Below are positions 27,979 through 28,681 of a stretch of DNA of 32,614 nucleotides, in pieces; the first letter of the stretch is position 1, and the number at the start of each line of letters is the position of its first letter. The stretch is from Akkermansiaceae bacterium (GTDB lineage Bacteria; Verrucomicrobiota; Verrucomicrobiia; Verrucomicrobiales; Akkermansiaceae). The notes beneath the pieces were generated by a model, which saw only the letters and a program-made list of their open reading frames with translations, made no database searches and was not told where the DNA came from. Location of the stretch: positions 1 through 32,614 of the forward strand of contig CANHPN010000026.1 of NCBI GenBank assembly GCA_947462535.1, read 5' to 3'. Made by a program: the position numbers and the translations under genes.

Positions 27979-28681
27979 GATTTGGCGGGATGAAATTTCG
28001 GGCAGACGCTAAGGGCATCCACTAGCCGCGGTCAAAAGCAATTGCTCCATCAATTCACGGGAGGAATCCTGATGGGAAAATCACTCGCGTGCCGAAGCTT
28101 GTGAATAACTTGGGCAAAGTGCCGGAATCCGGCTGTTCCAGAGGATTTCAGCACCGGCTTGAACGGGGATTCCCTGATTTCCTGATGAGTGCCGGGCACG
28201 CGATCTAGCGGGAGTTATCACCACTGATCCGGAGGCTTTAAACGACTGATGGATCTGATGCCCGCTGGAAATGAAAGGGATAGGGAGTTGTGAATCGCTT
28301 GCTCGCATTTGTTGCCAAGTTATTAACAATGGTTTCTGCTCCTTCCTGACGAGAAATCCGCAAGATGCGCGGCGGCCAGCCATCGTCCGTGCTCTGCAAA
28401 CTGTTTGAAAGAAATCCAATGTGAATAACTTGGTGAGATCTCGGTGTTCCACGCTGCGGACTAACTTGAAAACCACGGATCGGAGCCATCCGCATCGCGG
28501 TTTGTGGAACAATCTGGCGGAGGTCGGCTGATGATCGCGGGTCCCCGCGGCAATGACCGGCCGCATCCGGGATTACCGGCGGATTCTTTGCACTTTACGC
28601 GTGGGCGTGATCCCTTCAGACAAGTGGCCCCGCCGCATGAAAATCAGGAGGCGGATCTTTCAAATCACTCAACCATCCATC
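27979..28681. other. gene-free region with repeated DnaA-box-like sites; candidate origin or regulatory region
   Basis: About 700 bases lie between the divergent icd and DUF6941 genes. This is the longest stretch without a gene in the window and visibly lower in GC than its flanks. A 161-codon minus-strand frame (28081-28566) has no family resemblance or ribosome site and spans the repeats, so I do not call it a gene. The main content is a 14-base motif TGTGAATAACTTGG in several copies (28100-28433 and weaker ones nearby). Its first nine bases match the DnaA-box consensus (TTATnCACA on the other strand). There is also a short palindrome TTGTGGAACAA (28502-28512). A replication origin is possible but not proven; no dnaA, dnaN or gidA gene is close. 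Confidence 0.5.
28100..28433. repeat. dispersed 14-mer repeats TGTGAATAACTTGG, direct and inverted
   Basis: Two perfect copies lie at 28100-28113 and 28420-28433, both on the plus strand. One inverted copy with a single change lies at 28315-28328 (TGTTAATAACTTGG on the minus strand). A third direct copy at 28289-28302 matches 11 of 14. A weaker partial match sharing TAACTTG follows at 28456-28469. The two perfect copies contain TGTGAATAA, which fits TGTGnATAA exactly. Confidence 0.85.

What the first reader, a model, noticed from the sequence alone, without database searches (positions are those of the whole stretch)
28100..28512. Cluster of DnaA-box-like 14-mers in the largest gene-free region: candidate replication origin
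Seen: TGTGAATAACTTGG occurs twice perfectly (28100, 28420), once inverted with one change (28315-28328) and once with three changes (28289), in a lower-GC region of ~700 bases between divergent genes. Its first nine bases fit the DnaA-box consensus TGTGnATAA exactly. Known: bacterial origins hold several DnaA boxes in an intergenic region. Inference: this could be oriC, a DnaA-titrating locus (datA-like), or an operator array for icd or the DUF6941 gene. The absence of dnaA/dnaN/gidA nearby weakens but does not exclude oriC, since the origin is often unlinked to dnaA.
Basis: partly seen in the sequence, partly recalled or inferred. Interest (0 to 1): 0.6.

Follow-up and report, generated by a model that had tools for sequence, protein, structure and literature searches.

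The report
DnaA-binding control site outside origin
This stretch is probably not the start point of chromosome copying but a separate, conserved cluster of binding sites for the replication starter protein DnaA, in a bacterial group where control of copying is little studied; in about half of the relatives checked it sits next to a gene for isocitrate dehydrogenase.

Summary
The repeats are real and where stated. They look like DnaA double boxes: TGTGAATAA followed 11 bp on by a weaker 9-mer. A 19-bp form of the motif flanks dnaA in 34 of 118 named loci from many phyla.

The locus is not oriC by the evidence held. The own genome's likely origin lies on contig C2 near mnmG, where cumulative GC skew turns. 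In the complete relative G048 the skew minimum is 1.9 Mb from the array. No minus-to-plus skew switch occurs at the array in 24 loci.

The array is conserved: A(+), B(-), C(+), A-C 288-354 bp. In 53 genomes, 34 have the A-C pair and 24 the triad; shuffles give 0.4 and 0. B-C spacing steps by about one helical turn. An IHF-like site recurs about 50 bp before B. Neighbours turn over, but an isocitrate dehydrogenase gene, of either of two unrelated types, starts about 120 bp from A in 22 of 46 arrays.

Best reading: an extra-origin DnaA control element working like datA/DARS; DnaA control of isocitrate dehydrogenase is the main rival. Nothing was tested at the bench.

The parts
28100..28119 (+). 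DnaA double box A: strong 9-mer TGTGAATAA (28100-28108) and weak 9-mer TGGGCAAAG (28111-28119), 11 bp apart
   Evidence: 11-bp tandem pattern over 84 boxes
28309..28328 (-). DnaA double box B, inverted: TGTTAATAA on the minus strand (28320-28328), then weak TGGCAACAA
   Evidence: conserved as an inverted box in 24 of 53 genomes
28420..28439 (+). DnaA double box C: strong TGTGAATAA (28420-28428) and weak TGGTGAGAT (28431-28439)
   Evidence: A-C pair in 34 of 53 genomes
28289..28302 (+). weak box (3 changes) 26 bp before B; seen also in close relatives L304, L306 and L307 only as a weak match
28239..28251 (-). IHF-like site, one mismatch to WATCARNNNNTTR (consensus recalled); in this window it lies about 75 bp before B, outside the -60..-40 interval where the site recurs in relatives
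25750..27978 (-). monomeric isocitrate dehydrogenase gene; its start codon is 122 bp from box A
28682..29113 (+). DUF6941 gene, right-hand neighbour (function unknown)

Best explanation
A chromosomal DnaA-control element outside the origin. Shown by sequence: three DnaA double boxes, A(+), B(-), C(+), over about 330 bp, conserved across at least six genera of the family, away from the GC-skew minimum. Inferred: DnaA binds each strong 9-mer and reaches cooperatively onto the weaker 9-mer 11 bp further on; an IHF-like protein bends the DNA between A and B; boxes on one face of the helix are brought together into one DnaA complex. Inferred with less certainty: the complex holds DnaA back from oriC, by titration or by changing its nucleotide state, so that initiation timing follows the copy number of this mid-arm locus. 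A sink or inactivating (datA-like) action is put above a reactivating (DARS-like) one because the boxes are closer to consensus than those at the likely oriC, but the evidence does not separate them.
For: In 84 boxes the mean score of a soft DnaA matrix is 13.4 at the box, +4.6 at +11 bp, a small peak of -2.9 at +22, background -5.4; E. coli DnaA prefers double boxes 2 or 3 bp apart (PMC11317965, abstract and Results section read). Conservation: A-C pair in 34 of 53 genomes, triad in 24 of 53, shuffles 0.4 and 0.0; 20 of 29 same-genus genomes with upstream DNA held have near-exact boxes upstream of DUF6941, 17 of them with box B. Not the origin. Helical stepping of B-C: best period 10.7, Monte Carlo p 0.002, n=25. 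IHF-like site: 10 of 20 and 7 of 15 arrays against 0.74 and 0.64 expected. Three HU/IHF-family genes in the genome, one scoring better with IHF than HU models, below cut-off. Distance from mnmG as a fraction of the chromosome: 0.35 (G048), 0.32 (G019), 0.26 (G127); for E. coli DARS1 0.33 and DARS2 0.21 (PMC5010248, passages).
Against: No binding or phenotype data. The array is missing or diverged in some relatives: 83 of 145 family genomes lack the exact 14-mer, including all 19 of genus g3 (hand count), and 5 g3 genomes showed no clustered TGTGAATAAC. Nineteen of 53 genomes with the 14-mer have no A-C pair, and 2 of the 34 pairs (G057, G109, genus g9) lie inside a coding sequence. Spacing periodicity is weak for A-B (p 0.048, best period at the edge of the tested range). 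The IHF interval was chosen, rows share ancestry, and the window's own IHF-like site is outside that interval. No DnaA boxes at one mismatch or better were seen upstream of dnaA in its own locus, so how dnaA responds is unknown. The recurring isocitrate dehydrogenase neighbour suggests a local role too.
Confidence: 0.6

Rival explanations
1. A DnaA-bound operator of the isocitrate dehydrogenase gene: DnaA bound at box A, looped to B and C, tunes the enzyme's expression to the replication cycle.
For: An isocitrate dehydrogenase gene, reading away from A, lies beside box A (13-154 bp by the alignment ends, mostly 110-125) in 22 of 46 arrays: 17 of 24 in genus g1, 4 of 5 in g11, 1 of 8 in g7. The gene is monomeric (PF03971) in 15 and dimeric (PF00180) in 7. 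Two g1 genomes (G179, G189) carry the dimeric gene at the place where 15 others carry the unrelated monomeric one, with DUF6941 on the other side in all 17.
Against: 24 of 46 arrays have no such neighbour (g1 7, g7 7, g11 1, and all 9 in g10, g12 and g13) yet keep the boxes (the G044 row there was mis-picked by the script and has no neighbour match). In g7, arrays with the same other neighbours exist with the gene (G006) and without it (G039, G108, G019). Common descent of the locus plus one gene replacement would explain the linkage without regulation. Three widely spaced double boxes are more than a simple operator needs. No paper held the terms isocitrate dehydrogenase, DnaA box and replication initiation together.
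Confidence: 0.22
2. A second or conditional replication origin.
For: Strong double boxes near dnaA in other phyla lie at real or likely origins; the A-B interval is AT-richer than its flanks in nearly all of the 33 triads listed.
Against: No minus-to-plus GC-skew switch at the array in 24 loci, about 5 kb each side. Intergenic DNA is AT-richer anyway.
Confidence: 0.05
3. The chromosomal origin oriC itself.
For: Cluster of good DnaA boxes in an intergenic region, one cluster in most genomes that have it.
Against: Own genome: cumulative skew minimum near C2:65 kb, with a conserved box pair near C2:80.4 kb and mnmG at 85.96 kb. G048: skew minimum near 2.48 Mb, mnmG at 2.416 Mb with a parS-like palindrome 141 bp from the matched start, array at 4.42 Mb. 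G019 skew is noisy: its minimum region (about 3.5-4.0 Mb) is not sharply at mnmG (3.04 Mb), but the array (5.07 Mb) lies inside the positive stretch. G061 skew near either place is weak and uninformative.
Confidence: 0.03
4. Binding site of another, unnamed protein with a 14-bp motif, resembling DnaA boxes by accident.
For: All 14 positions are conserved, not only the first nine.
Against: The extra positions are those expected of a second DnaA 9-mer 11 bp on, and the motif marks dnaA loci in 34 of 118 named stretches.
Confidence: 0.06

Closest known systems
datA of Escherichia coli
   Same: Non-coding cluster of DnaA boxes away from oriC with an IHF site; high-affinity boxes (PMC5295017, PMC5742627, passages).
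   Different: datA's essential boxes all point one way within 183 bp; here B is inverted and the span is about 330 bp. datA lies near oriC; the array lies mid-arm in three complete relatives. No DnaA-ATP hydrolysis was tested.
DARS1/DARS2 of Escherichia coli
   Same: Core of three DnaA boxes, one opposite in direction to the other two; IHF site in DARS2; intergenic; relative distance to oriC 0.33 and 0.21 (PMC4585315, PMC5742627, PMC5010248, passages), here 0.26-0.35 from mnmG.
   Different: Spacing is much wider here; the inverted box is the middle one; no Fis site was looked for and Fis is said to be limited to gamma-proteobacteria related to E. coli (PMC4245941, passage). No sequence homology shown.
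DnaA-box clusters (DBCs) of Bacillus subtilis and analogous clusters in Streptomyces
   Same: Extra-origin DnaA-box clusters that restrain initiation (PMC5295017, PMC5742627, passages).
   Different: Six clusters in B. subtilis against one, sometimes two, here; internal layout of the DBCs was not compared.
E. coli oriC half-arrays
   Same: Strong box followed by weaker boxes spaced 2-4 bp apart in one direction (PMC5742627, passage).
   Different: Not at the skew minimum; no unwinding element was demonstrated.

Membership tests
oriC | Lies at the cumulative GC-skew minimum | tested here: not met
   G048 by sampling and tiling, own C2, 24 loci locally; G019 and G061 less clear
oriC | Cluster of DnaA boxes | tested here: met
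oriC | Unwinding element and helicase loading; replication starts here | not testable with these tools
   needs marker-frequency data; AT-richer A-B interval only
datA | Extra-origin cluster of high-affinity DnaA boxes | tested here: met
   by sequence only:
datA | IHF-binding site among the boxes | tested here: inconclusive
   IHF-like matches enriched 40-60 bp before B, post hoc interval; binding untested
datA | Essential boxes all in one direction | tested here: not met
   B is inverted in 24 of 24 triads by definition of the triad; A and C agree
datA | Promotes DnaA-ATP hydrolysis | not testable with these tools
   biochemistry needed
DARS | Core of three boxes with one reversed, at a fixed short spacing | tested here: not met
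   three boxes, one reversed: met; spacing 199-239 and 82-117 bp, against a whole DARS1 of 101 bp
DARS | Promotes ADP release from DnaA | not testable with these tools
   biochemistry needed
Extra-origin DnaA-box cluster (broad kind: datA, DARS, DBC) | Conserved DnaA boxes away from oriC | tested here: met
Extra-origin DnaA-box cluster (broad kind: datA, DARS, DBC) | Effect on initiation timing | not testable with these tools
   deletion and flow cytometry needed
Operator of isocitrate dehydrogenase | Stays with its target gene | tested here: inconclusive
   beside the gene in 22 of 46 arrays, absent in 24

The most novel reading that the evidence does not exclude
The array couples isocitrate dehydrogenase, and so entry of carbon into the second half of the TCA cycle, to DnaA and the replication cycle; the link is selected strongly enough that when one isocitrate dehydrogenase was replaced by an unrelated one in the same genus, the new gene took the same place about 120 bp from box A.
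Probability: 0.17. Interest if true: 0.8.

Novelty: new variant of a known kind. Interest (0 to 1): 0.52.

Why it matters
Extra-origin DnaA control sites are worked out mainly in E. coli, with clusters reported in Bacillus and Streptomyces. A conserved, phased three-box element in Verrucomicrobiota gives a defined target for testing DnaA control in a phylum for which my paper searches listed no study of it (two searches showed only 20 of 149 and 20 of 202 hits). The changing spacings by near-whole turns are a natural experiment on how DnaA complexes are built, and the repeated isocitrate dehydrogenase neighbour makes a link between metabolism and replication directly testable.

Tried and rejected
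oriC: rejected on GC skew and on a better candidate beside pdhC/mnmG. Terminus or fork-trap reading, suggested by the drop of skew at 28 kb in the window: rejected because 22 of 23 relatives keep the same sign on both sides. DUF6941 operator: DUF6941 is present without the boxes in 9 of 29 g1 loci, and the array without DUF6941 in G026 and G127. Known RNA gene: no Rfam family at gathering score overlapped the boxes in the window or within A-C of the 11 relatives' loci scanned. A coding reading of the 161-aa minus ORF over the array: A-C lengths fall in all three frames across 43 triads, so no shared frame. My first ORF picking chose antisense ORFs in places and was replaced. In one search G045 gave no array by the 285-375 bp rule (its pair is 271 bp apart) though an IDH hit lies beside it, and G044 was mis-picked. 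One search crashed on a masked stretch after printing the part used here. Nine of the 62 genomes with the 14-mer were not fetched (one search covers 53).

Full report
What was checked. The four repeats are at the stated coordinates, and the exact 14-mer occurs nowhere else in the held genome. They lie in the 703-base gap between a monomeric isocitrate dehydrogenase gene and a DUF6941 gene that diverge. The genome is an unnamed 2.82-Mb assembly in 104 contigs. Its genus g1 contains Luteolibacter pohnpeiensis and an Akkermansiaceae MAG: contigs G026:C198 and G135:C97 have the same lengths (18399 and 17611) as the named records L281 and L186. NCBI places Luteolibacter in Verrucomicrobiaceae, Verrucomicrobiota; the family label Akkermansiaceae comes from record titles.

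What the repeats are. Over 118 boxes from relatives the conserved part is TGTGAATAACTTGG followed by a weaker G, A-rich stretch. A soft DnaA-box matrix scores 13.4 on average at the box, +4.6 at +11 bp, -2.9 (a local peak) at +22 bp, and about -5.4 elsewhere, in 84 boxes. Part of the +11 score is built in, because the 14-mer used to collect the boxes reaches into the second 9-mer; but positions 15, 17, 19 and 20, outside it, are G 79, A 91, A 87 and A 70 of 118. So each repeat is a strong DnaA box with a weak second box 2 bp after it. E. coli DnaA prefers such double boxes in vivo, 2 or 3 bp apart (PMC11317965, abstract and Results read).

An independent test. Of the 118, 34 encode DnaA (tblastn with the own genome's DnaA). 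The motif lies 73-435 bp upstream of the estimated dnaA start in 27 and just past the dnaA 3' end in 7 (dnaN was not checked). I estimate that under one in 118 stretches of 8 kb would hold dnaA by chance. Ten of the 34 are Verrucomicrobia not titled Akkermansiaceae; nine have the double box at -301 to -363 and one at -133, and seven have a further same-strand box nearer dnaA.

It is not the origin. In the complete chromosome G048 (5.68 Mb), 20 sampled stretches give a clear two-phase skew, tiling puts the minimum near 2.48 Mb (partial output), mnmG is at 2.416 Mb with a parS-like palindrome 141 bp from the matched end, and the array is at 4.42 Mb. In the own genome, cumulative skew over the whole of contig C2 is lowest near 65 kb, and mnmG lies at 85.96 kb. 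Beside pdhC, 5-7.5 kb from mnmG, a plus and a minus DnaA-like box 144-146 bp apart recur in 5 of 5 genomes looked at (G048, G108, G061, G019, G000); in four of them (not aligned for G108) an AT-rich TTCTTCTT-type stretch precedes the first. The sixth contig examined, of G012, had no pdhC match. Around the array itself no minus-to-plus switch appears in 24 loci; 22 of 23 relatives keep one sign, and the window and L128 go plus to minus. Against this, G019's skew is noisy and its minimum is not sharply at its mnmG, and G061's is too weak to use.

It is conserved as an array. The exact 14-mer is in 62 of 145 family genomes and 10 of 16 genera; the reversed control pattern is in none. In the 53 of those 62 genomes for which I held DNA, 34 have two same-strand boxes 285-375 bp apart and 24 also have the inverted box 75-125 bp inside C; shuffled flanks give 0.4 and 0.0. 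The triads come from g1, g7, g13, g12, g10 and g11. Two of the 34 pairs are inside a coding sequence in g9 and are taken as coincidence. In 29 g1 loci with 1.1 kb upstream of DUF6941 held, 20 have near-exact boxes and 17 also box B; 9 have none (30 of the 58 matches had loci). In the complete g1 genome G127 the triad is at 91.6 kb while DUF6941 is at 4.22 Mb. Genus g3 has no exact 14-mer in 19 genomes, and 5 of them show no cluster of TGTGAATAAC.

Geometry. In 43 triads A-B is 199-239 and B-C 82-117 bp. B-C values group near 84, 95, 104 and 116. After collapsing to distinct genus-value pairs and leaving out named duplicates, B-C has best period 10.7 with Monte Carlo p 0.002 (n=25); A-B is weaker, p 0.048 (n=23), with its best period, 11.5, at the edge of the range tested. 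With named loci included the p values are below 0.001, but those rows are not independent. I take this as support for B and C being held on one face of the helix. Between A and B, a match to the IHF consensus (recalled) with at most one mismatch lies 60-40 bp before B in 10 of 20 g1 and 7 of 15 other arrays, against 0.74 and 0.64 in shuffles. That interval was picked after seeing the hits. The window's own site is further out, at 28239-28251. The genome has three HU/IHF-family genes; one scores better with IHF than HU models, all below the curated cut-offs.

Neighbours. Flanking genes change between genera and within g7, so the array is not tied to one gene. But while checking this report I found that the recurring neighbour in g11 and G006 is a dimeric isocitrate dehydrogenase (PF00180), as against the monomeric, unrelated enzyme in the window (PF03971). 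Over 46 arrays, 22 have an isocitrate dehydrogenase gene beside box A, reading away from it: 15 monomeric (all g1) and 7 dimeric (2 g1, 1 g7, 4 g11); 24 have none. In g1 the two types occupy the same place between conserved neighbours. The upstream sequences of the two types do not look alike, apart from the box. This may be descent plus one gene replacement, or a sign that DnaA controls this enzyme. I keep it as the main rival and as the most novel reading.

Mechanism and standing. Shown: DnaA double boxes, conserved triad, position off the origin, stepping of B-C. Inferred: DnaA binding, IHF-like bending, one looped complex, effect on initiation. It works most like the extra-origin clusters datA, DARS and DBC (papers seen as passages: PMC4585315, PMC5742627, PMC5295017, PMC5010248, PMC4245941). 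It fails the tested layout features of datA (one direction) and DARS (tight spacing), so it is not filed as either. Its distance from mnmG, 0.26-0.35 of the chromosome in three complete genomes, is near that of DARS1, but three points prove little, and a fourth complete genome, G090, showed no array.

Noticed in passing
own genome contig C2, about 80280-80520 (L149 about 4280-4520), and L078, L150, L151, L153: Likely oriC of the family: box pair 144-146 bp apart beside pdhC, 5-7.5 kb from mnmG, in 5 of 5 genomes, with an AT-rich stretch before it.
   Followed up: partly
window 25750-27978; L320, L331, L098, L127-L129, L132: Unrelated isocitrate dehydrogenases (monomeric and dimeric) occupy the same place beside box A, also within one genus.
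   Followed up: partly
window about 28045 (ggtcaaaagcaattgct), upstream of the monomeric isocitrate dehydrogenase: A conserved AGCAATTGCT-type palindrome lies between the monomeric gene and box A in most g1 loci printed; possibly that gene's own operator.
   Followed up: no
L146 10001-10358 (G012:C5), L147 10005-10076 (G019 4.61 Mb), L148 10005 (G061:C5): Further DnaA-box places besides the main array: a second pair 324 bp apart in G012, a tight cluster in G019, a single box in G061.
   Followed up: partly
L276, Akkermansia glycaniphila Pyt: Several same-strand DnaA-like boxes within about 220 bp, a layout unlike the triad.
   Followed up: no
L077 17375, L138/L149 (C2:86710), L150 (C4:706177 and 707006): parS-like palindrome TGTTCCACGTGGAACA near or inside mnmG in G048, G000 and G061; none in G012, and only a different match in G019.
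   Followed up: partly
L032, DnaA C-terminal domain: Signature reads GGRDHGTV where I recall GGRDHTTV in E. coli; might bear on box preference.
   Followed up: no
L188, L181, L235, L239: MAG records titled Akkermansia muciniphila; L188's DUF6941 is identical to the window's, so that title is probably wrong.
   Followed up: no
L116-L118, L121, L122 (genus g9): The 14-mer lies inside a conserved coding sequence, a coincidence to drop from counts.
   Followed up: partly
window 1001-2000: GC falls to 0.46 near the left end, beside a tRNA at 2442-2523; possibly an inserted stretch.
   Followed up: no
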